From the NCBI RefSeq assembly GCF_004121055.1, contig NZ_PYAL01000006.1, forward strand, positions 62,001 through 126,000: a stretch of DNA of 64,000 nucleotides. Direction: 5' to 3'. The notes below the pieces were generated by a model, which was not told the DNA's origin, ran no database searches, and saw nothing but the letters and a program-made list of their open reading frames with translations. The position numbers and the translations under genes were made by a program. This DNA comes from Achromobacter aloeverae (GTDB lineage: Bacteria > Pseudomonadota > Gammaproteobacteria > Burkholderiales > Burkholderiaceae_B). Each line of letters starts with the position of its first letter. The stretch's first letter is position 1. Positions 19,656 through 40,714 of this stretch are shown in pieces.

Positions 19656-19760
19656 GGTCGAGATCCCCCGGAAATGGATCCAGGTAGTAGCGGTTGTGCC
19701 CTTGGACGGGTCAGGTCCCGAGGCGATAAAAAGGTGCGCCGATGCACTGCCACATATAGT

Positions 19761-19805: not shown

Positions 19806-20004
19806 GGTGCGAGCGTGGCCGCAGAGGCGGTCGCGGGACTCGCGGGTCCGGTCGTCCGCCCCAAGGGCGGACGACATGCGCGATTTGATGCCATCGCGAT
19901 GGGTCGAAGACCGAGGATCCCGGAAACGAATGACCCGAAGCGTATGCCTTCCCCAGCGCCGGACCGCATCCATTCCATCCGCGCGCCGTCTCGTCCGCCG
20001 GGAA

Positions 20005-23832: not shown

Positions 23833-23914
23833 GCCTTGCTCCTGAAATCCGTCTGAACCCGATTCCCGCCGGGACGTGAAGGACGCCCGAGGGGGAGGGA
23901 AGCGAATTGTAATG

Positions 23915-24040: not shown

Positions 24041-25489
24041 CTATGCCGTCGCGGCCACCTCGGCGCCGGCCGGCTCGCGCACCGTGACCTCGGTCAGCGC
24101 AACATTCAGGGGCGCCACCGACTTCGCCTTGAAGGCGCCATTGGCCAGGACCAGGATGTCGCCCGCCTTTTCCTCGCCCACCGCCGCGCTGGCCAGCGAC
24201 ATGAACTTGCGCTCGATCTCGCTGTGCGGCATGGGATTCTCGGGCATGCCCAGCGAATAGTCCACCTGGCGCGTCAGCACCTTGCCCTGGCGGGTATGGA
24301 TGGTGACCTTGCCGCCGTAGATGTCGGGATAGGCCCGGTCGATTTCCGGATCGATCTCGATTTCCACCCGCTTGGACAGGTCGAAGACCTGCTTTTCGAC
24401 GATGCGTTCGGGCGTGAACTGCTCCAGGTAGGCCTGCCCGTCCGTCATCGCCACCGCGATGTTGTAGCGCAGGCTCATTTGCGCATTCAGCACGGAATCC
24501 GCGCGGTAGTCGAATCCCGTCTGCGTCCGCACCACGCTGGGGATGCCGGCCACGATGCGCGCCACGTCGGCGACGTCCAGGTCGTTCTCGCGGACCAGGG
24601 CCAGGGCGGCATCCACGCAGGCATGGTTGCTGCCGCAGCAGGCGTGCGGCTTGAAGCAGGTCGCGTCGGCATGCCAGAAGGACCCGAGGTCCTTGGTGAT
24701 CATGCCGGGACGCGGACTATCGGACATGCCGAACAGCAGGCCGCCATCCTCGGCTTCCAGGATGTAGCGCGGGCCCACGAAACCCCGGGCCGCCAGTAGC
24801 GCGGCCGCCACCCCGGCCTCCGCCGAACGGCCGGGATGCATGCGCTTGCTCATGCCGCCGTCCGCGGTGAACGCCCAAAGCCCGGCGGATTGCGTGCCGG
24901 CCAGGCCCAGCGCGCTGGCCGTGGTGGCGGCGTCCAGGCCCAGTATCACGCTGGCCGCGGCGGCCGCCGCCAGCGTGCCGGTGGTGCCGGTAAGGTGCCA
25001 GCCGCGCATGCGCGCACGGCTGGGATTGGCGGCCTGGCTGACGCGGTTCATGGTCTCGTAGCCGGCCGCCATGGCGACCATCGCGGTCCGGCCATCCACG
25101 CGCTCGCGTTCGCCCAAGGCCAGCACCACGGGCACGACCAGGGCGCCGGGATGGATCTTTGCGCGGCTGTGGTCGTCGAAGTCGAAGCTGTGGATCGCCG
25201 TGCCGGCCGCCAGGACACTGTTGTTCACGCTGACACGCGCCTGTGCGCCCCACAGACCCGCTTCCGCGGGGCCCTGGCGGTCCTTGGCATAGTCGCGCAT
25301 GATGCGGCCCCAGGGCGTGGTCAGGCCATACAGCCCGCAACCCACCGTATCGACCAGCGCCTTGGCCAGGACGTCCTGCGTATGCCCGGGCACGTCGCGC
25401 GGCCGCAGGTTCGCGATGAATTCCGCGAGGGCCAGGGTGATGCCCCGGTGTTCCGCCGCGAGCGCCTTCCAGGATTTCAAGTCATCCAT
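24041..25489 (-). CDS. MmgE/PrpD family protein (copy 1)
   Basis: A 482-residue MmgE/PrpD protein. The family includes 2-methylcitrate dehydratase, cis-aconitate decarboxylase and iminodisuccinate epimerase. Active-site motif HSFDFDDHSRAKIHPG is intact, as is the lid motif FKPHACCGSNH. Start: of two nearby ATGs I choose the one at 25489, six bases after GGGAG. The Bug gene ends 35 bases upstream, so protein and uptake receptor are probably a functional pair. Cytoplasmic; no signal. It is one of four paralogues in this operon that differ in active-site residues. Confidence 0.93.
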   Translation of the reverse strand: MDDLKSWKALAAEHRGITLALAEFIANLRPRDVPGHTQDVLAKALVDTVGCGLYGLTTPWGRIMRDYAKDRQGPAEAGLWGAQARVSVNNSVLAAGTAIHSFDFDDHSRAKIHPGALVVPVVLALGERERVDGRTAMVAMAAGYETMNRVSQAANPSRARMRGWHLTGTTGTLAAAAAASVILGLDAATTASALGLAGTQSAGLWAFTADGGMSKRMHPGRSAEAGVAAALLAARGFVGPRYILEAEDGGLLFGMSDSPRPGMITKDLGSFWHADATCFKPHACCGSNHACVDAALALVRENDLDVADVARIVAGIPSVVRTQTGFDYRADSVLNAQMSLRYNIAVAMTDGQAYLEQFTPERIVEKQVFDLSKRVEIEIDPEIDRAYPDIYGGKVTIHTRQGKVLTRQVDYSLGMPENPMPHSEIERKFMSLASAAVGEEKAGDILVLANGAFKAKSVAPLNVALTEVTVREPAGAEVAATA

Positions 25490-25524
25490 GTCCATCTCCC
25501 GTACTTTTCCCGTACCTATGCATG

Positions 25525-26529
25525 TCAATCGCCCTTCGCGCCCGACGCGCGGGCCACCTCGCCCCAGCGCACCGTTTCCGACTTCATGAACCCGGCAAAC
25601 GCTTCCGGCGATTCCTGGGTAAACGGCTCGATGCCCAGCTTGTTCAGGCTGGCTTTCACATCGGGCGAATTCACGGCCTGGACCAAGGCCTTGTGCAGCT
25701 TGTCCACGATGGGTTTGGGCGTCTTGGCGGGGGCCATGACGCCGAACCAGTTGAAGGCGAGCACCGTGGGCAGGCCGCCTTCCACCGATGTGGGGATGTC
25801 GGGCATGATCGAGGCGCGGTGGTTGTCGGTGACCGCGATGGGACGCAGCTTGCCTTCGCTGACCATGGCGAACAGCGCCGGCAGGTCGACAATGATGCCG
25901 TCCACGTGGCCGCCGACCGCGTCGGTGATGGCCGGGCCGGCGCCCTTGTACGGCACGTGGACGATGCGGCCCTTGGACGCGATCTTCAATAGCTCGATGG
26001 CCAGGTGCGGCAGGCCGCCGTTGCCGGACGAGGCCAACGTGATATCGCGCTTGCGCGACAGCTCCACCAATTCCTTCAGGCTCTTGGCGGGAACATCGGG
26101 ATTCAACGCGATCAGCTCCGGCGTGGCCGCCACGGTCGTGATGGCGACCAGGTCCTTGAGCGGGTCGAACGGCATATTGCTGTACGTGTGAGGGCTGATC
26201 ACCAGCGGGCTCGCGCTGCCCAGGGTGATGGTGTAGCCGTCCGGCGCGGCGCGCACCGTGTATTCCGTGCCGATGATGGCGTTGGCGCCGGCTCGGTTGT
26301 CCACGATGACCGAACCGCCCAGGATCTGTCCCAGCTTCGGCGCGATGATGCGCGCGACGATATCGTTGGAGCCGCCGGGCGGGAAGCCCACCACCAGGTG
26401 GATGGGGCGCGAGGGGTACTTGTCCTCGGCGGCGGCCGGTCCGGCCAGGCAGGCGGCCGCCAACAGGGCGATGGCGGCGGCGCCGGCGCCGGCGCGTATG
26501 GAAAGCAGGGATTTCATGCGGTTCAACAT
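25525..26529 (-). CDS. Bug-family (TTT) substrate-binding protein
   Basis: A 334-residue periplasmic binding protein with a long signal peptide (core ALLAAACLAGPAAA, cleavage near residue 35 before EDKYPSRP) and ligand-loop motifs VGFPPGGSNDIVAR and VPYKGAGPA. A Cys at the end of the signal core (AAACLAG) could in principle allow lipid attachment, but the AAE-type cleavage site downstream is more typical of the family. AAGGAG precedes the ATG. It sits between two PrpD-like genes within the distal operon. Confidence 0.92.
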   Translation of the reverse strand: MLNRMKSLLSIRAGAGAAAIALLAAACLAGPAAAEDKYPSRPIHLVVGFPPGGSNDIVARIIAPKLGQILGGSVIVDNRAGANAIIGTEYTVRAAPDGYTITLGSASPLVISPHTYSNMPFDPLKDLVAITTVAATPELIALNPDVPAKSLKELVELSRKRDITLASSGNGGLPHLAIELLKIASKGRIVHVPYKGAGPAITDAVGGHVDGIIVDLPALFAMVSEGKLRPIAVTDNHRASIMPDIPTSVEGGLPTVLAFNWFGVMAPAKTPKPIVDKLHKALVQAVNSPDVKASLNKLGIEPFTQESPEAFAGFMKSETVRWGEVARASGAKGD

Positions 26530-26709
26530 AGTGTCTCCTTATTCTTTTGCTTACGTGTCCGGACCGGGTGGCCCAAGACCAGGCCGATTGTCATCCGCCG
26601 TGTGCGCCGGAACCATCGCCAGGATGGCGGGAGGGGCTAGGGCGCGCCCCATCCACCGCGAGGGCTGGGAACCCGCCGACGGCCCCTCCGCGGCCTCCCT
26701 GCGTTTTCC

Positions 26710-28080
26710 TTATGCCCGCTTGGCCGCGCTCGATGGGATATCGGCGAACAGGCGCATCAGTTCCGCCACGTTGTCGACGTTCTCGATGTTCGCCACGGTT
26801 TCCGCTATTTGCGCCGAACGCTGCGCGCCGAGTACCGGTTGAGTCAGGCTGTCGAACTTGCCGCGCAGCTCGTCATCCGACATCGCGTTCTGGATGGATC
26901 CCTTCGGATAGTCCACCTGCGACACGTAACGCGTGCCGTCGTCCATCTCCATGGTCATGCGGCACGACACCCCGCGCGGCAGGCTTGGGTCCACGGTGAT
27001 CCTTACCCGCTCCGACAGCTTCGTCAGCATGGGCTCCTTCAGGCGCGCGTTGTTGTACTGGGGGAAAAGCGCCTGGCCGTCGGTCAGCGCCACCGCCACC
27101 GAGTAAGGCAGGCTGACCTGCGCCTCATGGTAGGTGACCGGATTGGCGTTCTGGTGATACAGGGCCCAATCCGGGTGCCGGGCCATCTCGATGTGCTTCA
27201 CCTTGTCCAGGTCGGGCGCATGCTTGCGACGGACCTCCAGCGCGCAATCGATGGCGTTGTGGATGGGGCGCGCGCACGAATACGGCTTGAATTCGATATC
27301 GAGCGGATATTCGCGGTCCAGGCCCGCCACCAGCTGACCGGGATCGTTCTTGTCCGTGAAGGCCTTCAGGAAGCCGCGCTCACCTTCGAAAATGGTGGCA
27401 GCGCCGGTGAAGCCCAGGTGCGCCATCAAGGCTGCGGTCACGCCGTTGCGCGCGGCCGGGCCAGGGTTGAAGCGCTTCTGCATGGACGGGCCGTACATTT
27501 CCATCAGGCCGCTCGCTTGCGCGCCGGCCAAGCCCAGCGCCGAGACCATCTGGTCCGCGCTCAGGTTCGCCAGCAAGGATGCCGCCACGGTGGCGCCGAA
27601 TACCCCGCACGTGGGCGTTGTGTGAAAGCCGCGATTGCGCAGCGAATTGTTCGCCGCCTTGCTGACGCGCTCCATCATTTCGCAACCCGCGGCCAGCGCC
27701 GACAGCAGTTGCCTGCCGGTGGCCGAGCCGCGTTCGGCGGTGGCGAGCGCGGCGGAGAACACCGGAGGGCTGAAGTGGAACAGCGCCAGCACGTCGATGT
27801 CGTCGAGTTCGACGCTGTGCGACGAAATGGCGTTGGCGAACGCGGCCTGCATGGCGGGCACACGCGCACCGTCGCCGATCAGCGTGGCTTCGCCGTTGCC
27901 GCCCGAGGAAAGCGCGAACTTGCGCGCCGCCACGCCACTACCTGTCTGGCTGCCCGACACGGCGACGCCGAGGTAATCCAGCAGCAGGCGCTTCATCGCC
28001 TTCCTGTTGGCTTCCGGCAGCTTTTCCGGCTTGAAGGAGAGGAAATGGTCCGCGAGTTGTTGGGCTACTGTCTTTGTCAT
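26710..28080 (-). CDS. MmgE/PrpD family protein (copy 2), variant active site
   Basis: A 456-residue MmgE/PrpD protein, start at the ATG after AGGAAC. Where other members have a DD-x-HPG motif, this one reads HSVELDDIDVLALFHFS, keeping both acidic residues and one His but losing the HPG. The lid motif is FKPYSCARPIH. This suggests a different substrate or a changed chemistry relative to copies 1 and 3. It follows copy 3 after 86 bases and is separated from the Bug gene by 180 bases. A longer upstream frame that runs into copy 3 is not coding. Confidence 0.92.
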   Translation of the reverse strand: MTKTVAQQLADHFLSFKPEKLPEANRKAMKRLLLDYLGVAVSGSQTGSGVAARKFALSSGGNGEATLIGDGARVPAMQAAFANAISSHSVELDDIDVLALFHFSPPVFSAALATAERGSATGRQLLSALAAGCEMMERVSKAANNSLRNRGFHTTPTCGVFGATVAASLLANLSADQMVSALGLAGAQASGLMEMYGPSMQKRFNPGPAARNGVTAALMAHLGFTGAATIFEGERGFLKAFTDKNDPGQLVAGLDREYPLDIEFKPYSCARPIHNAIDCALEVRRKHAPDLDKVKHIEMARHPDWALYHQNANPVTYHEAQVSLPYSVAVALTDGQALFPQYNNARLKEPMLTKLSERVRITVDPSLPRGVSCRMTMEMDDGTRYVSQVDYPKGSIQNAMSDDELRGKFDSLTQPVLGAQRSAQIAETVANIENVDNVAELMRLFADIPSSAAKRA

Positions 28081-28166
28081 GATGTTCCTGTCTTGACTGG
28101 GGATGAATAAGGGAAAAAATTCGGGAGGAAAGATTCGGGAGGAAAAATTCGTGGCCGGCCGCCGCT

Positions 28167-29567
28167 TCACCGGCGCGCGGCGGCGAGCAGGGCGATCAGC
28201 GCCGCTGGGCTGTCCAGCGTGTCCAGCCGCGCGCATAACTGCACGACCTCGTCGATGTCGGCCGCGCGGAGGCAGGGCGCGGCCACATTGCGGAACTTGT
28301 ATTCCACGTCTTCCGGCTTCAGCGGGTTCTCGGGACTGCCGCGTCGGTTCAGGATCCGGTGCGCCAGTTCGCGGCCGTCGCGGGTGCGTACCCGTACCGT
28401 GGCGGCATGGCGGTATGCGGGGCCCATGGCGTCGATCTCTTCGTCCGCCCGCGCGGTGATGCGGCTGATGAAATCCAGCAGCTTCGGATCCTTGAGGCGG
28501 TCCTCGCGGTACTGGTTGACGAACGCCATGCCGTCGTGCGCGATCACGGCCAGCCCGTAGTACAGGTTCATCTGCGCCGCCGTCACGCCCTGGGCCTTGT
28601 AGTCCCATGCGCAATGCACGAAGGTCATCTGGCTGACGCCTACATCCAGCGCGGCGATGTCGTCGGGCGCCAGCGCATGGGCCTGCATGATGTGCGCCAG
28701 GGCGTCCAGCGCCGAATGGATGCTGGTGACGCTGGCATGCGGCTTGTAGCCGGTCTTGGCCGTTTCCCACACCGTGCCCAGTCCTTCGGTCAGGCGCGCG
28801 GCGTTCGGTTCGTCCGAGTACGTGGACAGGTAGCCGCCATAACTGGCTTCCAGCACGTCGGTGATGCCCGTGAAGGCCTTGGCGGCCAGCTGCGCGGCAT
28901 ATACGCCGCTCTGGGCGGCGCGTCCGGAATGGAAGCGCTTGACCATGGCGCCTTCCTGCGCGGCCATCAGGCCGCCGGCCTGCGAGCCGACGATGCCCAG
29001 CGCATGCAGCATCCGGTTCGCGTCCAGGTCCAGGCTCCTGCCCGCGGTGCCGGCGGCCACGAAGGCGCCGGAGGTGCCTTGCGGATGGAAGCCGCGGAAG
29101 AACAGGCTCATGGTCGCCGCATTGCCCACGCGCGTGCCGACCTCGTAGCCCGTGGCCATGGCGGTGATCACATCGCGCCCGGTCCAGTTGCCGTCGCGCT
29201 CGGCGAAGGCCAGGGCGATCGGCGTGGCGATGGAGCCCGGGTGGACGATGGACTCCTTGTGGATATCGTCCAGCTCGAACGCATGGCCGGCGGTCGCGTT
29301 CACCAGCACGGCGCCGGCCACGGAGGTCTTGCTATCGCTGCCGAAGATGGACGCGACGGGGGCGGCGTTTTCCTCCTCGACCATTTCCCGCACCTTTTGC
29401 GTCCAGGGCAGGGTCGCGCCGTACAGGCAGCAGCCGATGCTGTCCAGCGCGCTGGTCTTGATGCGCGCCACGACCTCGGCGGGCAGGTCCTCATAACGGA
29501 TCGACGCGGCGAACGCGGCCAGGTCGCGCGTGGCGTTCTCCAACAGGGGCGGCTTGGAACTGCTCAT
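28167..29567 (-). CDS. MmgE/PrpD family protein (copy 3)
   Basis: A 466-residue MmgE/PrpD protein with a canonical HAFELDDIHKESIVHPG motif (about residues 114-130) and lid motif YKPHASVTSIH. The C-terminal RGSPENPLKPEDVEYKF element is typical of the family. GGAG precedes the ATG at eight bases. It lies 50 bases after the preceding Bug gene. Together with copy 2 it may form a heteromeric or two-step pair acting on that Bug protein's ligand; this is inference from adjacency. Confidence 0.93.
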   Translation of the reverse strand: MSSSKPPLLENATRDLAAFAASIRYEDLPAEVVARIKTSALDSIGCCLYGATLPWTQKVREMVEEENAAPVASIFGSDSKTSVAGAVLVNATAGHAFELDDIHKESIVHPGSIATPIALAFAERDGNWTGRDVITAMATGYEVGTRVGNAATMSLFFRGFHPQGTSGAFVAAGTAGRSLDLDANRMLHALGIVGSQAGGLMAAQEGAMVKRFHSGRAAQSGVYAAQLAAKAFTGITDVLEASYGGYLSTYSDEPNAARLTEGLGTVWETAKTGYKPHASVTSIHSALDALAHIMQAHALAPDDIAALDVGVSQMTFVHCAWDYKAQGVTAAQMNLYYGLAVIAHDGMAFVNQYREDRLKDPKLLDFISRITARADEEIDAMGPAYRHAATVRVRTRDGRELAHRILNRRGSPENPLKPEDVEYKFRNVAAPCLRAADIDEVVQLCARLDTLDSPAALIALLAAARR

Positions 29568-29617
29568 GAATGTGTCTCCATAACGGTGTTCACGCGGTGT
29601 TCATACGGTGTCGACGG

Positions 29618-30592
29618 CTAGTCGATGTGGGTGCCCGAGGCCTTGATGGCCTTGGCCCATTTCTCCGACTCGGCCTGGAGGAACGCGGCGGTCCTGTCCG
29701 GCCCCTCGTTGATGATGCTGACGCCCGCGTTGCCGAGGCGCTGCCGCAGGTCGGGCGATTTCAGCGCTTCGTCGAACTTGGCGGCCAGCGTGGACACGAT
29801 GCCGGGCGGCAGCTTGGCTGGTCCCAGCAGCATGTACCAGGTGGTCACCGAATAGCCCTTCACGCCGCCTTCGGCGATGGTGGGGATCTCCGGCGCGATG
29901 GGCGAGCGCGTGCTGCCGGTCTGTCCCAGCGCCCGCACCCGGTTGTCGCGGATATACGGCAGGCTTTCCGAAATGGGCAGCATGGTGATGTCCACGCGAT
30001 TGCCCAGCAGGTCGGTCATGATGGCGCCGCCGCCCTTGTACGGCACGTGCAGGTAGCGCAGGTCCGACATCGATCGCAAGACTTCGGTGGCCAGGTGCGA
30101 CGAGCTGCCATTGCCCGAGCTGGCGAAGCGGATGGCGTCGGGGCTGGCCGAGCTGGCCTTCACCAGGTCCGCGATGGAGTGGATGGGAAGGTCGTTCCGG
30201 ACCATCAGCACCAGCGGCGCCTCGCCCACCAGCGCGATCGGCTTGAAGTCGCCCAGCTTGTATTCGACCTTGCGATAGAGGCTGGGATTGATGGCGATGC
30301 CCGGCGTGCTGAACAGCAGGGTATAGCCGTCGGCCGGCGCCGTGGCGGCGGCGTCGAAGGCCAGGTTGCCCCCCGCGCCGGGCCGGTTCTCCACGACGAA
30401 GCTGTAGCCGGACAGTTCTCCCACCTTCTGCGTGACCATGCGCGTCACGATGTCGGCGCTGCCGCCGGCGGGGAAGGCCACCAGCACCCGGATGGGACGC
30501 GATGGATAGGTGTCGGCCTGCGCGGCGGGCGGCACGGCGCAGGCCAGGGCGGCGGCGGCCAGCCAGGCGCGCACGGGTAAGGTGAGGGGCAT
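29618..30592 (-). CDS. Bug-family (TTT) substrate-binding protein
   Basis: A 324-residue periplasmic binding protein, start at the ATG with AGGAG seven bases before it. Signal peptide core AWLAAAALACAVPPAAQA, cleavage before DTYPSRP. Ligand-loop motifs VAFPAGGSADIVTR and VPYKGGGAI. It sits 36 bases after the lactonase gene and just before two PrpD-like genes. Confidence 0.92.
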   Translation of the reverse strand: MPLTLPVRAWLAAAALACAVPPAAQADTYPSRPIRVLVAFPAGGSADIVTRMVTQKVGELSGYSFVVENRPGAGGNLAFDAAATAPADGYTLLFSTPGIAINPSLYRKVEYKLGDFKPIALVGEAPLVLMVRNDLPIHSIADLVKASSASPDAIRFASSGNGSSSHLATEVLRSMSDLRYLHVPYKGGGAIMTDLLGNRVDITMLPISESLPYIRDNRVRALGQTGSTRSPIAPEIPTIAEGGVKGYSVTTWYMLLGPAKLPPGIVSTLAAKFDEALKSPDLRQRLGNAGVSIINEGPDRTAAFLQAESEKWAKAIKASGTHID

Positions 30593-30628
30593 AACGGGTC
30601 TCCTGGTGGTCGCCATGGGTGGCGTTTG

Positions 30629-31447
30629 TTATTCGGACGGCATCACGTCAAGCCGAACCGCGATGTCCCGCAGGTCTTCGGACGGCGCCGGATAGCGCCG
30701 CATGACCAGCGGGTCGTGGCCCGGCACGATGTGCCGGGGCGAGGCGGCGAGCCTGTGCAGCGTGTCGTAGCCTTCCAGCGCCTGGCCGACGTTGAACATG
30801 GTCGTGAAGGCGCGCTTCTTCTCGAAGTGCTCGTAGAAATGGCTGGTGTCGGAGGCCAGCACGACCCAGCCGCGCTGCGTATGCACGCGCACGCATTGCA
30901 GGCCGTGCGTGTGGCCGCCGATGTGGTGGATGCTGAGTCCGGGCGCCAGCTCCGCATCGCCGGAATGGAAGACCACGCGGTCCTTGTAGACCATGCGCAC
31001 CATGCCCGTCACTTCTTCCACCTCGTAGCCATGGTTGAACTGGCGATGCCGCATGTGGCGTCCGGTCGCGTAGGCCATCTCGGCGTCCTGCAGGTGGAAG
31101 CGGGCCTTGGCGAAGGTATCGAACGTGCCGACGTGGTCGTAGTGGAGATGCGTGATGATCACGTCCTCGACCTGCGACACGTCGACATCCAGCAGCGCCA
31201 GGCTGTCGGCCACCGTGCGCAGCAAGGTGCGGCCGCGCTTCTGCGCGACGTCGGCGCCGAAGCCGGTGTCGACGCAATACACGCGGCCATGGCCGCGCAC
31301 CAGCCATACGAAATAATCCATGGGCATGGGCGCGTCGTGCGGATCGCCGCCGATGAAATGGTTGTGGCGCCGGGCGTCGCGGGTGGCGTAGCGGATGGCG
31401 TAGACCTCGTAGGACGGCAGGTTGGAAGCTCGGTGGGTATCGGTCAT
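30629..31447 (-). CDS. Metallo-beta-lactamase-fold lactonase (AHL-lactonase-like), copy A
   Basis: A 272-residue cytoplasmic MBL-fold hydrolase of the N-acyl-homoserine-lactonase-like group. Metal ligands: His100, His102, Asp104 and His105 in HLHYDH, His179 in GGHTHG, Asp200 in LASDTSH, and His244 in VPGHDPL. This complete set predicts a dinuclear zinc site. The group opens lactone rings; in a catabolic operon a ring-opening of a pathway lactone is more likely than quorum quenching. The start is the ATG at 31447, with only a weak purine run before it. A close paralogue heads the proximal operon. Confidence 0.88.
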   Translation of the reverse strand: MTDTHRASNLPSYEVYAIRYATRDARRHNHFIGGDPHDAPMPMDYFVWLVRGHGRVYCVDTGFGADVAQKRGRTLLRTVADSLALLDVDVSQVEDVIITHLHYDHVGTFDTFAKARFHLQDAEMAYATGRHMRHRQFNHGYEVEEVTGMVRMVYKDRVVFHSGDAELAPGLSIHHIGGHTHGLQCVRVHTQRGWVVLASDTSHFYEHFEKKRAFTTMFNVGQALEGYDTLHRLAASPRHIVPGHDPLVMRRYPAPSEDLRDIAVRLDVMPSE

Positions 31448-31568
31448 TTTTTCTGCTTGGCGTGGGTGTAGCGACGGGAGGGGCGTCGGCGATAGTGGCG
31501 GGAGAGCGGTAACGAAAGGGGCAGGGGAAGCGATCGGCGCGGATGCATGGCTGGGGGCGCGGCGTGTG

Positions 31569-32942
31569 TCAGGACGCGCCGCGCAGCAGGTCGCCCAGCG
31601 CACCGGCGGCCGGCAAGGCCTCCAAGGCAAGAACGGTGTCGCGGACGGGACCGACGGCAGCCCCGTGCACGCCGGCCGCCACCGTCTCGAATTTGCGGAC
31701 GATGTCTTGCGGCGACATGGGGTTCTCGGGCTCGCCCAGGGCGTGGTCCAGCGTGTGGCGCAGCGTGCTGCCGTCTTCCAGCGTGAGCTCGACCACAGCC
31801 GGCCGACGGTCGGGATAGCCGGCGTCCAGGCGGTTGTCCGCGCGCACGTCGGTTTTCTCCATCAGCGCGCGGACGCGGGGATCGGCCAGCATGCTGGCGG
31901 TGAACCGCGCGGGCGTGGCATCGCCCGCGACCAGCATGGCGGCGATCGAGAAGCCGATGGAGAACTGCGCCTGGTCGGCGTTCAAGGGGGGCTCCACGGC
32001 CGCCGCGAACGTGACCGTGTCCACGCTTACGCGTAGGCGGGCGATCCGTGACGCCGTGACGCCTTGCGCGCGCACCAGCGCCGCGACGGCGTCGACCGGC
32101 GCATGGTTGCCGCGGCAGCCGCCGTGCACCTTCACATAGGTTTCACCGATATGCCATCGTTCCCCGAGGCCTGCGCCCGCGCGGTCGGCGCGGGCTTCGT
32201 CGGCGTAGGCCTTCAGGAATCCATTCTCGAAAATGTCCGGCGTGCCGGTGGCGCCCTGGTCCGCGTACATGGCTGACAGGAGCCCGCCCTCGCTGCTGCG
32301 GCCTACCTGCAAGGGCTGGCTGTCGGCGCTCTTGAGCGCCACCTTCAAGCCCGCGCCGTGACTGCATGCAATGGCGACGGCGTGGGCCGCGCGTGCGGCG
32401 GGTAGCCCCAGCAGATTGGCGGCCGCGGCGGCCGTGGCGGGAGCGGCCAATATGGCCGTGCTCTGGAAACCGCGTCGTACCGTGGAGGGGTAGATGGCGT
32501 GGCCCAGTCGCAGGAACACCTCGTAGCCCACGGCCACGGCTTCGAGCAGCGCCCGACCGGATGCGCCGCGCGCCTGTGCCAGGGCCATCGTCGCGGGAAT
32601 CACGGCCGACGACGGATGGCCGCCGGTATACCGCGAGCCGTCCTCGAAATACGTGGAGTGGGCCAGCGCGCTGTTGATGATGGCGGCGTCGCGCAAACCG
32701 CGGCCCTGGCGGGCGCCCCAGATCGGGAGGGGGCCGTCGCCCTGCAACAGGTTCAGCAACCGGGTGGCGTTGCCTGCCAGCAGGCCGCTGGCGGACGCGG
32801 CGATCGTGTCCAGGATGCGCAGCTTCACCGCCTGCGCCACATCCTGGGGCAATGACGCGTAGTGCGTAGCCGCTGCGAAGGCACCCAGGCGGGCAGCCAG
32901 CAGGGGCAGGGCCGCGGCGCGGGAATCCAGGGTCTTGGCCAT
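31569..32942 (-). CDS. MmgE/PrpD family protein (copy 4), variant active site
   Basis: A 457-residue MmgE/PrpD protein. The active-site region reads HSTYFEDGSRYTGGHPS: one of the two conserved aspartates is replaced, and HPG has become HPS. The lid motif VKVHGGCRGNHAP also differs from the other copies. It is thus the most divergent of the four. It starts 12 bases after the OYE-Bug fusion gene and is surely co-transcribed with it. Substrate unknown. Confidence 0.92.
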   Translation of the reverse strand: MAKTLDSRAAALPLLAARLGAFAAATHYASLPQDVAQAVKLRILDTIAASASGLLAGNATRLLNLLQGDGPLPIWGARQGRGLRDAAIINSALAHSTYFEDGSRYTGGHPSSAVIPATMALAQARGASGRALLEAVAVGYEVFLRLGHAIYPSTVRRGFQSTAILAAPATAAAAANLLGLPAARAAHAVAIACSHGAGLKVALKSADSQPLQVGRSSEGGLLSAMYADQGATGTPDIFENGFLKAYADEARADRAGAGLGERWHIGETYVKVHGGCRGNHAPVDAVAALVRAQGVTASRIARLRVSVDTVTFAAAVEPPLNADQAQFSIGFSIAAMLVAGDATPARFTASMLADPRVRALMEKTDVRADNRLDAGYPDRRPAVVELTLEDGSTLRHTLDHALGEPENPMSPQDIVRKFETVAAGVHGAAVGPVRDTVLALEALPAAGALGDLLRGAS

Positions 32943-32954
32943 GGCGCGCTCCCT

Positions 32955-35921
32955 TCAATCCGTTTTCAGGCCGATGGCGTGGATAACATCGCGCCACTTC
33001 TGCACTTCCGAACGCACCTTGGCGTTCGCGTCATCCGAACTGTCGGCGATGACCTCCGCGCCTTGCTCGTTGAAGAAATGCTCGATTTCCGGCGACTTCA
33101 GTACGGCGACCACGTCCGCGTTCAGCTTCGTGACCACATCCAAGGGCGTGCCGGCCGGCGCGAACAGGCCGTACCAGGTATCGGCCTCGTAGCCCTTCAA
33201 GCCGCTCTCGGCCAGCGTGGGCATGTCGCGCAGCATCGAGGGCCGCCGCGCGCTGGTGGAGGCCAGCCCCTTCAGCTTGCCGTTCCTGATCAGCGGGATG
33301 ACGACGGGCGCGTTGGCGATCATCATCTGCACCTGGCCGCCCAGCAGGTCCGTCATGGCGGGGCCGCTGCCCTTGTAGGGGACGTGCGTAATGGACACAC
33401 CGGCCATGCTCTTGAATATTTCCGCGGCAAGATGCGGCGGCGTGCCATTGCCGGGCGACGCGTAGTTGAGGACGCCGGGCTTGGCCTTGGCCAGCGCGAT
33501 CAGGTCCTGCACCGACCGCGCCGGCACCGCCGGATTGAGCACCAGGATGTTGGGCGTATTGGCCACCAGCGTGATTGCCACCGTGTCGCGCGTGGCATCG
33601 AAGGGCAGGTTGCGGTACAGGCTCTGGTTGATGGCATGGGTGCCGACGGTGCCCAGCACCAGGGTGTAGCCGTCGGCCGGCGCCCGCGCGCCCGCCTCGG
33701 TGCCGATGTTGCCGCCGGCGCCCGCGCGGTTCTCGATGACGACCGGTTGGCCCCACTTCTCGCCCAGTTTCTGCGCCATCGGGCGCGCCAGGATGTCCGT
33801 GCCCCCGCCCGGCGGGAACGGCACGATCAGGCGCACGGGACGATCGGGGTAGGGGCCGGCTACCGCCAGGCCGGACAGCGGCAGGATGCAGGCCAGCAGC
33901 AGGCCCGAGGCCAGCAGCAAGGCCGTGCTGCGCCGTGCGGCGGACCGGCGCGCGCGGGCGTCCACGCTCAGCGCCACCATCCATGCATCGCGCAGCGCCG
34001 CCAGGAAATCCCCCGGTGCGTTGCAGTCGCCGACGCGGGCGTAGGGCACATCGGCCGCCTGCACGGCTGCCACTGCGTCGGTGCGTGGACGCGGGCCGGT
34101 GGCAAATACCAGCATGTCGCCGATTTCGACGCGACAGGGCGGCTCTCCCTGCATCTGCACCTCCAGGTGCCGGTCCAGCACGCGCAGGATGCGACATTGG
34201 GTGAGAATGCGCGCGCCGCCGGCTGCCAGCCGCTCGACCAATTCGAATTTGTTGTTGCGCGCCATGCCGTTTGCGATCGTTGCCTGGATTTCAACGAGGG
34301 TGACGTGGACGCCCCGCTCGCGCAGCGCATCGGCTGTCTCCGCGCCCACCATGCCGCCGCCTACGATGGTTGCTTTCATGCCGGGGCGCAGCGCTTCCAG
34401 GTCGGCCAGCAGTTCCCACGCATGCAGCACCCGTACGGCGGGCGCCAGTGCGCCGACGTCCATGGGCGGTGGGGCGGGTTGGGCGCCGGTGGCCACAACC
34501 ACATAATCGGGCGCATGGGCCCGGATGCGCGCGGCATCGGCCTCGATGCCGGTCAATACTCGCACGCCCAGGCGGCGCGCCGCGTTCCAGCGATAGCTCC
34601 ATACGGGCTCGACTTCCATCTTGTCGGGCGCGGCGATCGCCAGCGGAACCTGGCCACCTGGCGCGTCGCCCTTTTCCCAGACTTCCACGTCGTGACCGCG
34701 GCCCTTCAGGATGCGTGCAGCCTCCATGCCCGCTATGCCCGCGCCAAGCACCAGGACGCGCTGGCGCGGCTCGGACGGCGCGGCGAACAGTTGCGGCTCC
34801 GCATGCTCCAGCGCTTCGAATTCCGTGCCTATCATCGGATTGGTCGCGCAGGAAACGTCCTTTTCCAGCGTCAACCGCTCGAAGCAGACGTTGCAGGCGA
34901 TACATTGCCGGATGGGCGCGTCCAGCTTGCCGAACGCCTTCAGGCACCAATGCGGGTCCGCATACAACGCGCGTCCAACCGATACGAAATCGGCGCTGCC
35001 CGATGCCAGTACCGCCTCGGCGTCCGCGGGCTCGACGATGCGTCCGGCCACGAAGACGGGAATCTTCACCGCCTGCTTGATCGGCCGCGCCGTATCGGCG
35101 AGGCACCCGCGCGGAAAGGACGGCGGCTGGATGCAGAACTTCGACAACTGCGGGCTTTCATTGCTGCCGCCTGAAAGGTCGATGGCGTCGGCGCCTTCCT
35201 GTTCCACCGCTTGCGCCAATGCCACGATGTCCGCCTCGGTATAGCCGCCTTGCGCGAACTCGCTGGCGCTCAGGCGGATGACCAGGCGCAGGTCGGGCAG
35301 GGCATCGCGCAGGCGTCGCATCGTCTCCAGCAGCAGGCGCATGCGGTTGGCCAGGGATCCGCCGTAAGCGTCATCGCGGTGGTTGATGCGGGGGCTGAAG
35401 AATTGCTGGAACAGGTAGCCGTTGGCGGCGTGGATCTCGACGCCGTCATAGCCCGCCAGCCAGAGCCGCCGCGCGGCCGCGACGAACAGCTTCTGTATTT
35501 CCACGATCTCGCGCACCGCCAGCGCCCGCACCTCGTCGCCCGTGTTCGGATTGAACCAGGGCGACGGACCCACCGGTTCCATGTTCAGCACCGACCGGCG
35601 CAACAGCGCGCCGCGATGGTTCAACTGTCCGAACACATGGCAGTCGTGCTGCTTGATGGCGTCGACGATGCTGGCCAGGCCGGGGATGAACCGGTCGTGA
35701 TAGCAGCACAGGGAATTGTTGTGGGGCCGCGCCCGCTCGGTCACCACCATGGCCTCGGTCATGATCATGCCGACGCCGCCGCGTGCGCGTTCCGCGTAAT
35801 ACTGCTTGTCGCGCTCTGTGGACAGCCCGTCGGTGGTGCTGTAGTTGGTGCCCATGGGCGCCATGACCACGCGGTTCTTCAGGCGCAGGCCGCCTATGAA
35901 TCCAGGCTGTTCGAGCAGCAT
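32955..35921 (-). CDS. OYE/2,4-dienoyl-CoA-reductase-type flavoenzyme fused in frame to a Bug protein
   Basis: A 988-codon frame with no stop between two complete domains. Residues 1-645 are an FadH/BaiCD-like NADH:flavin oxidoreductase: FMN barrel 1-335 with NHRDDAYGGS, 4Fe-4S cysteines Cys340, Cys343, Cys346 and Cys358, FAD loop GAGIAG (393-398), NAD loop GGGMVG (521-526) and the closing RVGDCNAPGDFLAALRD. Then comes Met648, a basic stretch RARRSAARRS, a hydrophobic core TALLLASGLLLACILPL and a full Bug domain from about 689 (VPFPPGGGTDILAR, VPYKGSGPA). A cytoplasmic flavoenzyme linked to an exported receptor is topologically odd. Internal initiation at Met648 would give a normal Bug precursor, but only a weak ribosome site is seen. 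Start: ATG after TAGGAG; first gene of the distal operon. Confidence 0.85.
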   Translation of the reverse strand: MLLEQPGFIGGLRLKNRVVMAPMGTNYSTTDGLSTERDKQYYAERARGGVGMIMTEAMVVTERARPHNNSLCCYHDRFIPGLASIVDAIKQHDCHVFGQLNHRGALLRRSVLNMEPVGPSPWFNPNTGDEVRALAVREIVEIQKLFVAAARRLWLAGYDGVEIHAANGYLFQQFFSPRINHRDDAYGGSLANRMRLLLETMRRLRDALPDLRLVIRLSASEFAQGGYTEADIVALAQAVEQEGADAIDLSGGSNESPQLSKFCIQPPSFPRGCLADTARPIKQAVKIPVFVAGRIVEPADAEAVLASGSADFVSVGRALYADPHWCLKAFGKLDAPIRQCIACNVCFERLTLEKDVSCATNPMIGTEFEALEHAEPQLFAAPSEPRQRVLVLGAGIAGMEAARILKGRGHDVEVWEKGDAPGGQVPLAIAAPDKMEVEPVWSYRWNAARRLGVRVLTGIEADAARIRAHAPDYVVVATGAQPAPPPMDVGALAPAVRVLHAWELLADLEALRPGMKATIVGGGMVGAETADALRERGVHVTLVEIQATIANGMARNNKFELVERLAAGGARILTQCRILRVLDRHLEVQMQGEPPCRVEIGDMLVFATGPRPRTDAVAAVQAADVPYARVGDCNAPGDFLAALRDAWMVALSVDARARRSAARRSTALLLASGLLLACILPLSGLAVAGPYPDRPVRLIVPFPPGGGTDILARPMAQKLGEKWGQPVVIENRAGAGGNIGTEAGARAPADGYTLVLGTVGTHAINQSLYRNLPFDATRDTVAITLVANTPNILVLNPAVPARSVQDLIALAKAKPGVLNYASPGNGTPPHLAAEIFKSMAGVSITHVPYKGSGPAMTDLLGGQVQMMIANAPVVIPLIRNGKLKGLASTSARRPSMLRDMPTLAESGLKGYEADTWYGLFAPAGTPLDVVTKLNADVVAVLKSPEIEHFFNEQGAEVIADSSDDANAKVRSEVQKWRDVIHAIGLKTD

Positions 35922-36002
35922 GGGCAAGGTCTCCTAGTCTTTTTTCTGGTCCTTCCTAGATGCCGTGGCGCGGATATCGTCATGCATCGAAGCGGTCCAA
36001 AT

Positions 36003-36079
36003 CAGTCTAATTGTCGTGTTCAGTGCGATCAATCTGGCGAAAATAAAAACACTGATGAACTTGGTTCAGTAATTGAGGC
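36003..36079. promoter_or_regulatory. Duplicated LysR-type promoter/operator, distal copy
   Basis: This segment aligns without large gaps to 45751-45829, the gap between the LysR gene and the proximal operon. Shared blocks include CAGTCTAA, GATCAATC, AAAACACT, TCAG and AAT in the same order and orientation. It precedes the OYE-Bug gene but, unlike the other copy, is not followed by a regulator: homology fades where the LysR start codon would be, and livF ends 40 bases on. It is probably bound by the LysR protein encoded at 45.8 kb. The rest of the 198-base gap holds nothing else recognisable. Confidence 0.7.
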
Positions 36080-36119
36080 GTGCGAGCCCGCGCGGCCCTA
36101 TCCCCTCGCGACAGGCAGC

Positions 36120-36833
36120 CTAGACGCCCAGATAGGCTCGGCGCACGGAGGGGTCCGCAAGCAGGTCCTGGCCGCTGCCCGACCGCGTGACGGCGCCCTG
36201 TTCGAAAACATAGGCTTGCGCCGCCAGGCTCAATGCCAGGCGCGCGTTCTGTTCCACCAGCACCACCGAAATGCCGCTTTCCTCGTTCAGGCGCTGTATG
36301 GCAAGCGCGATCTCCGCGACGACCTTGGGCGCAATGCCCAGCGACGGTTCGTCCAGCATCAGGATGGACGGGCAGGACATCATGGCGCGGCCGATGGCCA
36401 CCATCTGCTGTTCGCCGCCGGACAGCGATCCGGCCATCTGGCGGCGTCGTTCGGCGACCTTGGGGAACAGGGCGTAGACCTGCTCCAGGGCGTTGCGACG
36501 CCGCGCGCCGTGGCGCACGGTGTGCGCGCCTACTTCCAGGTTCTCCAGCACGCTCATCCGGGGAAACAGGCGGCGTCCTTCCGGCGACAGCGCGATGCCG
36601 CGCGCCACGCGATGCGCGGCGCTGGTCCGGTCGATGCGCTCGCCGTCCATCGTCAACGTGCCGGAAGACAGCCGCTTCAGGCCCATCAAGGCCTTCAGCG
36701 TGGTGCTCTTGCCGGCGCCATTGGACCCGATCAGCGCCACGATACGGCCAGCCTCGATCGTGAAGGAAGCTGCGCGCACGGCGGCGAGCGCTCCGTAGTG
36801 GACGACGATGTCCTTGGCTTCAAGCGTCGGCAT
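36120..36833 (-). CDS. livF: Branched-chain amino acid-type ABC transporter ATPase LivF
   Basis: A 237-residue ATPase of the LivF type. Walker A GSNGAGKST near residues 37-45, signature LSGGEQQM near 138-145, Walker B ILMLDEPSLGIAP near 156-168. It forms the ATPase heterodimer with the adjacent LivG. Its start overlaps the end of livG by 14 bases. Last gene of the proximal operon. The HAAT family imports branched-chain amino acids but also aromatic acids, amides and urea, so the substrate here is probably the pathway compound rather than leucine. Confidence 0.92.
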   Translation of the reverse strand: MPTLEAKDIVVHYGALAAVRAASFTIEAGRIVALIGSNGAGKSTTLKALMGLKRLSSGTLTMDGERIDRTSAAHRVARGIALSPEGRRLFPRMSVLENLEVGAHTVRHGARRRNALEQVYALFPKVAERRRQMAGSLSGGEQQMVAIGRAMMSCPSILMLDEPSLGIAPKVVAEIALAIQRLNEESGISVVLVEQNARLALSLAAQAYVFEQGAVTRSGSGQDLLADPSVRRAYLGV

Positions 36834-37599
36834 GTTGCGGGGTTCCCAGGTAGGCTTCGATCACGGCCGGGTCGTCGCGGATCTGTTGCGGCGTGCCCTC
36901 GGCGATCTTCCGGCCCTGCACCAGCACCACAATGCGTTCGCAGGTATCCATGACCAGCGCCATGTGGTGCTCGACGAAGAGCAGGGTCAATTTGTATTCG
37001 CTGCGCAGGCGCTTGAGCAGCCTGCCGAATTCCGCGCATTCTTCCTGGTTCAGGCCCGCGGCCGGTTCGTCCAGCAGCAGCAGCGTCGGTCGCGTTGCCA
37101 GGCCGATGGCCACGCCCAGGCGCTTCTGGTAGCCGTAGGCCAGCTCGCCCGCCAGCTTGCCGCCGTAGCGGTCCAGGCCCGTTACCGCCAGCACTTCGTC
37201 CGTGTGCTTTCTCAACGCGCGCATCGCGTTGCGATAGGCGCTGCCGCCCAGCAGCTGGCTGAACAAGGACGCATCGAGCGTCGAGATCGCTCCGCGGAAG
37301 ACGTTTTCCGCCACCGTGGCGGCGGGATAGACCGCGGCGGACTGGAAGGTGCGCGCCAGGCCGTGCCTGACCACCTTGCTGGCTTGCATCCCGGCGATTT
37401 CCCTGTCGCCGAAGATGACGCTGCCGGCGCTGGGCCGCAGCGCGCCGCTGACCAGATTGAATGCCGTGCTCTTGCCGGCGCCGTTGGGGCCGATCAGGCC
37501 CATGATCTCGCCCTCGTTCACGTCGAAACTGAGTTCGTCCACCGCCTTCAGCCCGCCGAAGAATTTGGACAGGTCGCGCACCCGCAGCAGCACGTTCAT
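36820..37599 (-). CDS. livG: Branched-chain amino acid-type ABC transporter ATPase LivG
   Basis: A 259-residue ATPase of the LivG type, with Walker A GPNGAGKST near 36-44, LAYGYQKRLGVAIGLA as the variant signature typical of LivG, and Walker B LLLLDEPAAGLN. The start codon overlaps the livM stop (ATGA), which fixes the ATG at 37599; a much longer upstream frame that runs antisense through livM is not coding. Confidence 0.93.
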   Translation of the reverse strand: MNVLLRVRDLSKFFGGLKAVDELSFDVNEGEIMGLIGPNGAGKSTAFNLVSGALRPSAGSVIFGDREIAGMQASKVVRHGLARTFQSAAVYPAATVAENVFRGAISTLDASLFSQLLGGSAYRNAMRALRKHTDEVLAVTGLDRYGGKLAGELAYGYQKRLGVAIGLATRPTLLLLDEPAAGLNQEECAEFGRLLKRLRSEYKLTLLFVEHHMALVMDTCERIVVLVQGRKIAEGTPQQIRDDPAVIEAYLGTPQHADA

Positions 37600-38585
37600 G
37601 TTTGGCCCCCGCGCCGGCGCGACGAGAAGAGGCCGGCAATGCCTTGCGGCAGGAACTTGAGGATCAGGATCAGCGTGATCCCGTAGAAAATGTTCTGCGA
37701 TTGCACGGCGCCGCGGAACAGCTCGGGCAGCGGCGTCATGATCAGCGCGCCCACCAACGGCCCGAGGACTGAATGGCGTCCGCCGACCACCAGCATGATG
37801 ATGGCCGCGATGGACACCTGCGCATTGAAGGACTCCGGCGATACGTAGCCGACATAGCGCGCCAGGAAGGCCCCGGCCAGCCCCGCCATGGCGCTGCCGG
37901 CGACGAAGGCGAACAGCTGGTGGTCCTGCACGCTCAGGCCGCTGGCCTCCGCCAGCGCCGGGTTCTGCCCGACCGCGTCCAGCGCGTGCCCGCGCGGCGT
38001 GCGGAACAGCGCCCACAGGAACAGGATGGACAGGGCCGCCAGGGGCGCCGCCACGCAATAGAATGCCGGCTTCGTATCGAGCACGAAGCCGAACAGCGAG
38101 GCCGGCGGGATGTTGGCGATGCCGTTGGCGCCTCCTGTCAGGTCCGCGGCTTCCAGCAGCCCCAACCGTACCAGCTCCCCGAATGCGAACGTGATCAACA
38201 CGAAGTACACGCCGCGCAGGCGCAGGATGGCCGACCCCAGCAGCCAGGCCAGCAAGGCCGCGGCCAGCACGCCCGCCGCCGTCGCGGGCAGGAAGGGCAC
38301 GCCCAGCTTCATGGACAGCAGCACCGACACATAGGCGCCCACGCCCATGAAGGCGCCATGGCACAGGGACAGCTGTCCCACCCGTATCAGCATGGACAGG
38401 CCGCTGACCACCACCACGTTCAGGCAAACCAGCACGGCCAGGTGCACGTAGAACTGGCTGTCCGTCAGGAAGGGCAGCGCCAGGAGCACCAGCACCGCCA
38501 GCGCGGACAGCGGCGCCCGCCGTCCCGGCGGCGCGTCGCGCGCGTCGGACAGCGCGCTGGCGGGCATGGTGTTCTGCTTCTCCAT
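37596..38585 (-). CDS. livM: ABC transporter permease LivM
   Basis: A 329-residue inner-membrane permease with about 9-10 hydrophobic helices. The family motif GQLSLCHGAFMGVGAY (near 70-85) and the coupling-helix stretch ALDAVGQNPALAEASGL are present. I choose the ATG at 38585 because CGGAG lies eight bases before it; an in-frame GTG three codons earlier overlaps the livH stop but has no room for a ribosome site. Pairs with LivH to form the channel. Confidence 0.9.
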   Translation of the reverse strand: MEKQNTMPASALSDARDAPPGRRAPLSALAVLVLLALPFLTDSQFYVHLAVLVCLNVVVVSGLSMLIRVGQLSLCHGAFMGVGAYVSVLLSMKLGVPFLPATAAGVLAAALLAWLLGSAILRLRGVYFVLITFAFGELVRLGLLEAADLTGGANGIANIPPASLFGFVLDTKPAFYCVAAPLAALSILFLWALFRTPRGHALDAVGQNPALAEASGLSVQDHQLFAFVAGSAMAGLAGAFLARYVGYVSPESFNAQVSIAAIIMLVVGGRHSVLGPLVGALIMTPLPELFRGAVQSQNIFYGITLILILKFLPQGIAGLFSSRRRGGQT

Positions 38586-38590
38586 CGTTA

Positions 38591-39457
38591 TCACTCCGCT
38601 TTGCCCAGCAGGCCCGTCGGCCGGAATATCAGCATCACGATGACCAGGGCGAAGATCATCATGTCGGCCGTGCTGCCGCTGAAAAAGGTGCTGCCCAGGC
38701 TCTCGGCCAGCCCCAGCAGCAGGCTGGCCAGGGCGGCGCCCGGTATGCTGCCCAGCCCGCCCAGCACCACCACGATGAAGGCCTTGAACAGCGGCGCGCC
38801 GCCTATGAAGGGCGACACCGAGAACACCGGCGCCATCAGCGCGCCGGCGATGGCCGCCAGGCCGACGCCCAGGCCGAAGCCCAGCGGGTACACGATATGG
38901 GAGCGGATGCCCTGCGCCGTGGCGATCTCCATGTCCTGCACCACCGCACGCAAGGCGCGGCCGCTGCGCGTATGCATGAGGAACAAATACAGTGCCGCCA
39001 GTACCAGCGCCGAGAACACCACCACGTAAAGACGCGACACGGGCATGATGATCTCGCCCAGCGCGATCACGCCCTCCGCCGGCGCCGGCATCGATTGGGG
39101 GTCAGGGCCGAACAGCATCAGCGCGCCGTTCTGCAGGATCATCGCCAGGCCCAGCGTGGCGATCAGGCCGTTCAATTCGTCGCCGCGGAAGGACTTGAGT
39201 ATGAACACCTCGACTCCCCAGCCAAATGCCAGCGCCAGGACGAAGGCGACCAGCACCGCCACGAGGAAAGGCATGCCGTACTGCGTCACGCAGACGAGCG
39301 CGGCGAAGGCGCCCAGCATGTAGAACTCGCCATGGGCGAAATTGGCGATGCGCATTACCCCGAAAACCAGGGTGAAGCCGATGGCGATCAGCAGGTATAG
39401 CAGGCCGATGATGATGCCGTTGGTCAGCGCCTGGCCGAGGAGGAAGGTGAAGTTCAC
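38591..39457 (-). CDS. livH: ABC transporter permease LivH
   Basis: A 288-residue inner-membrane permease with about eight hydrophobic helices. Characteristic segments are ANFAHGEFYMLGAF near 39-52, ATLGLAMILQNG and GSIPGAALASLLLGLAESLGS. Start is GTG with GGGGAA five bases before it. It lies 18 bases after the second binding-protein gene. Confidence 0.92.
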   Translation of the reverse strand: MNFTFLLGQALTNGIIIGLLYLLIAIGFTLVFGVMRIANFAHGEFYMLGAFAALVCVTQYGMPFLVAVLVAFVLALAFGWGVEVFILKSFRGDELNGLIATLGLAMILQNGALMLFGPDPQSMPAPAEGVIALGEIIMPVSRLYVVVFSALVLAALYLFLMHTRSGRALRAVVQDMEIATAQGIRSHIVYPLGFGLGVGLAAIAGALMAPVFSVSPFIGGAPLFKAFIVVVLGGLGSIPGAALASLLLGLAESLGSTFFSGSTADMMIFALVIVMLIFRPTGLLGKAE

Positions 39458-39475
39458 GGCGGTTCCCCGTACGGC

Positions 39476-40633
39476 CTACCGGCAGGCGGCAAGCGTGCAT
39501 GTCGCGGCTATCGCTTCCTTGCCGTCATGCACCTTGGAAAGGAAGAAGGGCGCGTCGATCTGCTGGTTCGAGCCGTAGATCGCCTGGCCCGTCCAGTTGC
39601 TGGTGCCCAGGATGCCCCTGTAGTCCTTGATGTCGATCAGCGCCGTGCGGACCTTGTCGGAATCGCTGACGGTGCCCGCGTCCGAAATGGCCCGCAGCAG
39701 CATGTGGGTGCCGTCATAGAACGACGGGCTGAAGCCGTTCATGGTCTTCTTGTACTTTGCCTGGTAGCGGTCCGCGTAGGCCTTCACGGCCGGGTTGCCG
39801 GGATCGAACTGGGTGTAGACGATCATGCCCTCCACCGCCTTCGGTCCCGCCACGGCCACGATTTCCGCGGTCGCCGGGCCGCCGCTGCGTATGAACATGC
39901 CCTTGAATCCAAGCTCCCGCGCCTGTTTGGCGATCAGCCCCGCGGTGGCGGGCGAGATGCCGTTCAGCTCGATGGCATCGACCCCCTTGGCCATCAGGCC
40001 CGTGATCAGGGGCACCATGTCTACGCGGTCGCGTTCGAAGTAGGCGTAGGCCGCGAAGGGATACCCCGCTTTCTGGTATGCCTTGGACAGGTATTCGTAC
40101 TGTTGCTGGCCCGACTCGTCATTGACGAACAGTCCGCCGACCTTGTGCGCGCCCGCCACCTTCGTCACCCAGTCGATCATGGGCTGCGCGGTCTCGACGC
40201 TGGTCAGCACCGGCCGGAACGAAAACGGTTTGTCCGGCGCCAGTGCCTTGGACGTGAACGCCAGCATCATCAGCAAGACCTTGTTCTTCTCGGTGATGGG
40301 AGCCAGGGCCAGCACGGGCGCGGACCCGGTCGGCCCGATGATGAACTTCACCTTGTCCTCGTACACCAGGCGGTTCATCGCCGTCACGGCTTCATTGGCC
40401 TGGTACTTGTCGTCGTACGCCACCAGCTCGACGCGGTACTTCTTCCCGCCCACGTCCAGGCCGCCCTTGGCGTTCACGTCGTCGGCGGCCAGCTCGGCGC
40501 CGTACAGCATGCCTTGTCCCCAGGCCGCCCCGGGACCGGACAGCGTCACGACGGCGCCCAGCTTCAATACTTCCTGTCCTTGCGCTGTTCCAGCAGCGCA
40601 CAACAACGCGGCAAGCAGATAACGCTTGATCAT
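39476..40633 (-). CDS. LivK-like ABC substrate-binding protein, copy 2
   Basis: A 385-residue periplasmic type I binding protein for the LivHMGF system. Signal peptide MIKRYLLAALLCAAGTAQG, mature start QEVLKLGAV. LSGPGAAWGQGMLYGAELAADDVNAKGG is the conserved first lobe. It is a close paralogue of the gene just upstream (for example KYKKTMNGFSPSF is identical in both), yet the ligand-side segments differ, suggesting two ligands for one transporter. GGGAGA precedes the ATG. Confidence 0.93.
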   Translation of the reverse strand: MIKRYLLAALLCAAGTAQGQEVLKLGAVVTLSGPGAAWGQGMLYGAELAADDVNAKGGLDVGGKKYRVELVAYDDKYQANEAVTAMNRLVYEDKVKFIIGPTGSAPVLALAPITEKNKVLLMMLAFTSKALAPDKPFSFRPVLTSVETAQPMIDWVTKVAGAHKVGGLFVNDESGQQQYEYLSKAYQKAGYPFAAYAYFERDRVDMVPLITGLMAKGVDAIELNGISPATAGLIAKQARELGFKGMFIRSGGPATAEIVAVAGPKAVEGMIVYTQFDPGNPAVKAYADRYQAKYKKTMNGFSPSFYDGTHMLLRAISDAGTVSDSDKVRTALIDIKDYRGILGTSNWTGQAIYGSNQQIDAPFFLSKVHDGKEAIAATCTLAACR

Positions 40634-40714
40634 GATCGTCTCCCGAAAGATCGGCCTGGCGCGGTCCGGCCGCGCGGCGCTCCATAGTTAGTATTCTGTC
40701 GGTGCCGTCGGTAC

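What the first reader, a model, noticed from the sequence alone, without database searches (positions are those of the whole stretch)
32955..35921. In-frame fusion of an OYE-type iron-sulfur flavoenzyme to a Bug periplasmic receptor
A complete FadH/BaiCD-like oxidoreductase (FMN, 4Fe-4S, FAD and NAD motifs all intact) continues without a stop into a complete Bug protein with its own signal-peptide-like segment starting at Met648. A cytoplasmic cofactor enzyme tethered to an exported receptor is unexpected. Either a stop codon was lost and the Bug protein is made by internal initiation, or the product is a membrane-anchored enzyme with a periplasmic sensory or receptor domain, coupling ligand capture to reduction.
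Basis: partly seen in the sequence, partly recalled or inferred. Interest (0 to 1): 0.75.

Follow-up and report, generated by a model that had tools for sequence, protein, structure and literature searches.

The report
Two neighbouring genes fused by deletion
In this one bacterium a small deletion appears to have joined the gene for a metabolic flavoenzyme to the next gene, for a nutrient-binding protein of the cell envelope; both halves look intact, but relatives keep them separate, so this is most likely a tolerated accident rather than a new kind of sensor-enzyme.

Summary
In detail: on the minus strand one 988-codon frame (ATG 35921 to stop 32955; 105.8 kDa) encodes a complete old-yellow-enzyme-type Fe-S flavoenzyme (OYE) followed, without a stop, by a complete Bug/TctC receptor with a signal-peptide-like segment. 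It is not a widespread two-domain family. In genus relative G002 and in MAG L072/G294 the same gene order exists, but OYE has its own stop and Bug its own ATG. OYE core to Bug core spans 138 nt here, 241 and 192 nt in those two, so a deletion of about 54-103 nt most likely removed OYE's stop and Bug's start. Of 31 family genomes (268 searched) with the OYE, only this one is fused; of 13 others in the order, none. Neither half evolves faster than its unfused counterpart. Best reading: a lineage-specific fusion of operon neighbours. The full-length protein should be made; the buried signal can still export Bug, probably with cleavage at AVA|G, perhaps aided by internal initiation at GTG653 (inferred, untested). 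Nothing found supports selected coupling of ligand capture to reduction.

The parts
33981..35921 (-). OYE-type FMN / 4Fe-4S / FAD-NAD(P) oxidoreductase half (residues 1-647 from ATG 35921)
   Evidence: Pfam Oxidored_FMN and Pyr_redox_2; 69-80% identity to 13 orthologues; nearest solved structures 6qkg (NCR) and 1ps9 (2,4-dienoyl-CoA reductase); Cys340/343/346/358 invariant
33858..33980 (-). Junction: OYE tail, Arg-rich stretch, hydrophobic segment (peak residues 665-687) and AVA|G signal-peptidase-like site (688/689). Candidate internal starts ATG648 (33980), GTG649 (33977), GTG653 (33965)
   Evidence: alignment to G002 junction
32955..33857 (-). Bug/TctC solute-binding protein half (mature part, about 31.5 kDa) with stop codon
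   Evidence: Pfam TctC 257 bits, cutoff 27; 85.6% identity to the separate Bug of G002; nearest solved structures BugE 2dvz, AdpC-like 5oei, TBP 8hka
31569..32942 (-). MmgE/PrpD-family gene that starts 12 nt after the fusion's stop
   Evidence: the same neighbour in G002 and G294
24041..31438 (-). Rest of the conserved cluster: metallo-beta-lactamase-fold gene, Bug, two MmgE/PrpD, Bug, MmgE/PrpD
   Evidence: order conserved in G002 (L143) and largely in G294 (L144)

Best explanation
A lineage-specific fusion of two operon neighbours. Shown: relatives have OYE-stop-(start)Bug in the same place; here the junction is 54 nt shorter than in MAG L072/G294 and 103 nt shorter than in G002, and OYE's stop and Bug's start and ribosome site are gone while both protein cores and a signal-like segment remain. 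Inferred: one in-frame deletion did this. Inferred for the product: ribosomes starting at the OYE ATG read on to make a 105.8-kDa chain; the OYE half folds in the cytoplasm, the Arg-rich stretch plus hydrophobic segment acts as an internal signal (N inside, C outside), Bug is exported, and signal peptidase can cut at AVA|G, leaving a membrane-tethered OYE of about 74 kDa and a free Bug of about 31.5 kDa. Some free Bug may also start at GTG653. The two activities are then the same as in relatives, linked only at synthesis.
For: Separate orthologous genes in G002 (Bug 85.6% identical) and L072/G294 (71-75%); junction lengths 138 vs 241 and 192 nt and the alignment gaps. Fusion found in 1 of 31 family genomes with the OYE out of 268 searched, 0 of 13 others in 399 of the order, 0 of 80 loci from genome contigs. 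Both halves constrained: window-unique vs G002-unique residues 48 vs 41 (OYE, 647 sites) and 15 vs 16 (Bug, 295 sites); NG86 dN/dS 0.19 and 0.14. The window differs at 4 of 328 columns invariant in the other 13 OYEs; those rows range 0-15. Hydrophobic peak mean Kyte-Doolittle 2.26, preceded by Arg-rich residues. Unfused OYEs end in tails of varying length (11-69 residues past the core in the closer relatives), so a C-terminal extension is probably tolerated. No second close copy of either half in the genome: next Bug 46% identity, no other OYE at E<=1e-150.
Against: No read data, second strain, proteomics or ribosome profiling, so an assembly error is not excluded and the age of the fusion is unknown; if very recent, the rate test says nothing about function. 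No signal-peptide or topology predictor was run, and structure prediction did not run. The SD-like site before GTG653 is also present in 4 genus relatives and in L072 where Bug does not start there, and a stronger internal site lies inside the OYE (-12.6 at 34154).
Confidence: 0.72

Rival explanations
1. Two products by internal initiation: the fused frame is mainly read as OYE (and fusion), but working Bug comes from GTG653 or ATG648 with the Arg-rich segment as an ordinary N-terminal signal peptide.
For: GTG653 has SD-like duplex energy -10.3, 4th strongest of 391 internal in-frame start codons in 12 genes of the window, and would give a signal-peptide-like N-terminus.
Against: The same site scores -10.3 in L011-L014 and L072, where Bug starts elsewhere, so it did not evolve for this. 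ATG648 is weak (-2.0). Reading through from OYE does not need it.
Confidence: 0.35
2. Selected two-domain receptor-enzyme: an uncleaved inner-membrane protein in which the periplasmic Bug captures a ligand and the cytoplasmic OYE reduces it or is regulated by it.
For: Both halves intact and constrained; a hydrophobic segment of membrane-spanning length between them; the pair is adjacent in relatives too.
Against: Found in one genome only. Bug receptors as described pass ligand to membrane permeases or sensors (PMC5812351, passages). The segment keeps an AVA|G cleavage-like site.
Confidence: 0.08
3. Assembly or sequencing artefact at the junction.
For: Draft assembly, 13 contigs; no relative shares the junction.
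Against: The missing part is 54-103 nt, not a single-base slip, it leaves the frame open, and it lies well inside a 502,904-base contig.
Confidence: 0.08
4. A decaying gene pair: the fusion abolished one function and the halves are on the way to loss.
For: Loss of Bug's own start region.
Against: No stop or frameshift in 988 codons, no rate acceleration.
Confidence: 0.1

Closest known systems
2-naphthoyl-CoA reductase (PDB 6qkg) and 2,4-dienoyl-CoA reductase FadH (1ps9)
   Same: Same FMN barrel, 4Fe-4S and FAD/NAD(P) layout over residues 6-645 and 7-539.
   Different: Cys spacing C-x2-C-x2-C here, C-x2-C-x3-C in both structures; His164 where both have other residues; C-terminal Bug domain absent from them.
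BaiCD, mycofactocin OYE 2, bilirubin reductase (NCBIfam NF041087, TIGR03997, NF045599)
   Same: Full-length matches of the OYE half (397.7, 442.6, 383.2 bits).
   Different: All below their equivalog cutoffs (825, 793, 750), so substrate is not assigned.
Bug/TctC solute-binding proteins (BugE 2dvz, Bug27 2qpq, AdpC-type 5oei, TBP 8hka)
   Same: TctC fold over the whole C-terminal half.
   Different: Here preceded in frame by an enzyme rather than starting with its own signal peptide.
Separate OYE and Bug genes of G002 (L011/L143) and MAG L072/G294
   Same: Same gene order and orthologous proteins.
   Different: Stop and start codons between them.

Membership tests
OYE-type Fe-S flavoenzyme (FadH/NCR/BaiCD superfamily) | FMN-binding barrel plus FAD/NAD(P) module | tested here: met
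   Pfam PF00724 221.5 bits, PF07992 89.7 bits
OYE-type Fe-S flavoenzyme (FadH/NCR/BaiCD superfamily) | Four cysteines for 4Fe-4S | tested here: met
   C340, C343, C346, C358 invariant in 18 sequences; spacing one residue shorter than NCR/DCR
BaiCD / mycofactocin OYE2 / bilirubin reductase | Score above the curated equivalog cutoff | tested here: not met
Bug/TctC receptor | TctC domain | tested here: met
   257.3 bits, cutoff 27
Bug/TctC receptor | Own start codon and N-terminal signal peptide | tested here: inconclusive
   Signal-like segment present but buried; the start region of relatives is missing; candidate internal starts only
Established two-domain receptor-enzyme family | Same architecture in independent genomes | tested here: not met
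   1 of 31, 0 of 13 others, 0 of 80 loci, 0 of 226 plasmid records with one place covering 80%
Membrane-anchored enzyme | Protein found in the inner membrane | not testable with these tools
   needs fractionation

The most novel reading that the evidence does not exclude
A natural, working inner-membrane protein in which a cytoplasmic Fe-S flavoenzyme is tethered through a former signal peptide to a periplasmic Bug receptor, so that capture of a substrate outside and its reduction inside are held in one chain.
Probability: 0.08. Interest if true: 0.65.

Novelty: new variant of a known kind. Interest (0 to 1): 0.3.

Why it matters
If confirmed in the isolate, it is a natural test of what happens when a signal peptide becomes internal after a 650-residue cytoplasmic enzyme: whether export and cleavage still work, and whether a tethered enzyme is tolerated. 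It also warns that an automatic annotation would call this one multidomain protein. It does not reveal a new receptor-enzyme class.

Tried and rejected
Rejected as the main reading: conserved receptor-enzyme family, chance open frame, single-base frameshift (lengths). Led nowhere: alignment A3 of fused plus single-domain proteins put the Bug-only rows in the wrong half (27% for an 86% orthologue), so it was not used. YN00 dN/dS failed with a math error; only NG86 is given. Promoter/terminator scan of 32000-37000: one + strand promoter-like site, no terminator-like site. Paper searches for enzyme-Bug or OYE-periplasmic fusions and internal signals or operon fusions listed nothing that describes this pair; one search listed three NCR papers, none opened. 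Of ten Bug loci of the own genome reported with open frames of 640 or more, eight were used as controls; in two (L137, L142) the Bug frame proved to be bounded by stops close by, and the further stretches fetched for them (L145, L146) were not used. The list of Bug hits was cut short.

Full report
What is there. On the minus strand a single frame runs from ATG 35921 (mechanically from TTG 35927) to the stop at 32955, 988 codons from the ATG. Pfam finds Oxidored_FMN and Pyr_redox_2 in the first two thirds and TctC in the last third. The OYE half is 69-80% identical to 13 orthologues, and its nearest solved structures are 2-naphthoyl-CoA reductase and 2,4-dienoyl-CoA reductase. It fails the cutoffs of BaiCD, mycofactocin OYE2 and bilirubin reductase, so its substrate is open. 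The Bug half matches BugE, AdpC-type and terephthalate-binding proteins. Between them lies an Arg-rich stretch, a hydrophobic segment (best 19-residue mean 2.26) and AVA|G before the mature Bug start.

What the relatives show. In G002, the closest relative at this locus, OYE ends with its own stop, and a Bug 85.6% identical starts 25 nt later (24-26 nt depending on how the stop is counted) from its own ATG in another frame. Both keep the order OYE, Bug, MmgE/PrpD, metallo-beta-lactamase-fold gene, Bug, MmgE/PrpD. Other relatives have a different Bug (about 40%) next to OYE, or the metallo-beta-lactamase-fold gene.

The junction. From the Met of the OYE core to the conserved [RK]P of Bug there are 138 nt here, against 241 (G002) and 192 (L072) for the orthologous pairs and 168-227 in seven relatives with a non-orthologous Bug. 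The alignment with G002 places gaps of 16 and 87 nt that cover the OYE stop and the Bug start. One or more deletions in frame, after the split from G002, is the simplest reading; this is inferred.

How rare it is. Of 268 family genomes searched, 31 have a match at E<=1e-180. Only the window's own runs through without a stop; one other (G182) spans both halves with a TAA between, and no further match passes residue 692. In the order, 14 of 399 match, the own genome included; G294 spans both with a TAG and no other passes residue 678. In genome contigs 88 relatives were found and 80 kept; all 80 have a stop after the OYE match; that tool may leave out records very near the window's genome. In plasmids no place covers 80% of the query among 226 matching records. 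Metagenomes were not searched.

Is it decaying? No stop or frameshift interrupts it. With L072 as outgroup, window-only and G002-only changes are 48 and 41 of 647 sites in OYE and 15 and 16 of 295 in Bug; NG86 dN/dS is 0.19 and 0.14. Of columns invariant in the other 13 OYEs, the window differs at 4 of 328; each row tested in the same way gives 0-15. These data fit function of both halves, but also a very recent fusion.

How it probably works. Ribosomes that start at the OYE ATG (SD -7.3) meet no stop, so the full chain should be made. The Arg-rich plus hydrophobic segment has the layout of a signal and should orient N inside, C outside; AVA|G would allow cleavage into about 74.3 and 31.5 kDa. 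Export and cleavage are inferred from general knowledge of signal sequences, not tested. Internal initiation is the main alternative source of Bug: GTG653 has the 4th strongest SD-like energy of 391 internal in-frame starts in 12 genes. But five of eight relatives examined have the same score at this place, in one of them without a start codon, and the frame's strongest internal site is elsewhere (34154, -12.6). No second close copy of Bug or OYE exists in the genome at the thresholds used.

Literature. Passages of PMC5812351 and PMC5994714 describe Bug/TctC proteins as numerous, mostly orphan periplasmic receptors, with BctC also needed for signalling; the passages seen mention fused TctAB and fused DctQM subunits, not a TctC-enzyme fusion. 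Search listings gave no paper on this pair; that is absence in those searches only.

Verdict. A real, apparently unique, in-frame fusion of two operon neighbours by deletion; ordinary in origin, with an interesting but untested consequence for export. Interest 0.3.

Noticed in passing
window 34844-34906 (Cys340-Cys358 of the OYE half): The 4Fe-4S cysteines are spaced C-x2-C-x2-C-x11-C in this clade, against C-x2-C-x3-C in NCR and 2,4-dienoyl-CoA reductase.
   Followed up: partly
window 24041-32942: Cluster with four MmgE/PrpD-family genes and two further Bug genes on the same strand, conserved in order in G002; pathway unknown.
   Followed up: partly
window 36120-41875: Branched-chain-amino-acid-type ABC transporter genes directly upstream, with two solute-binding proteins in a row.
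   Followed up: no
L012, after the OYE core: The OYE of G004 carries a low-complexity Gln-Gly repeat tail before its stop.
   Followed up: no
window 20005-23832 (-) and 19435-23856 (+): Very long overlapping open frames on both strands (1275 and 1473 aa); not examined.
   Followed up: no
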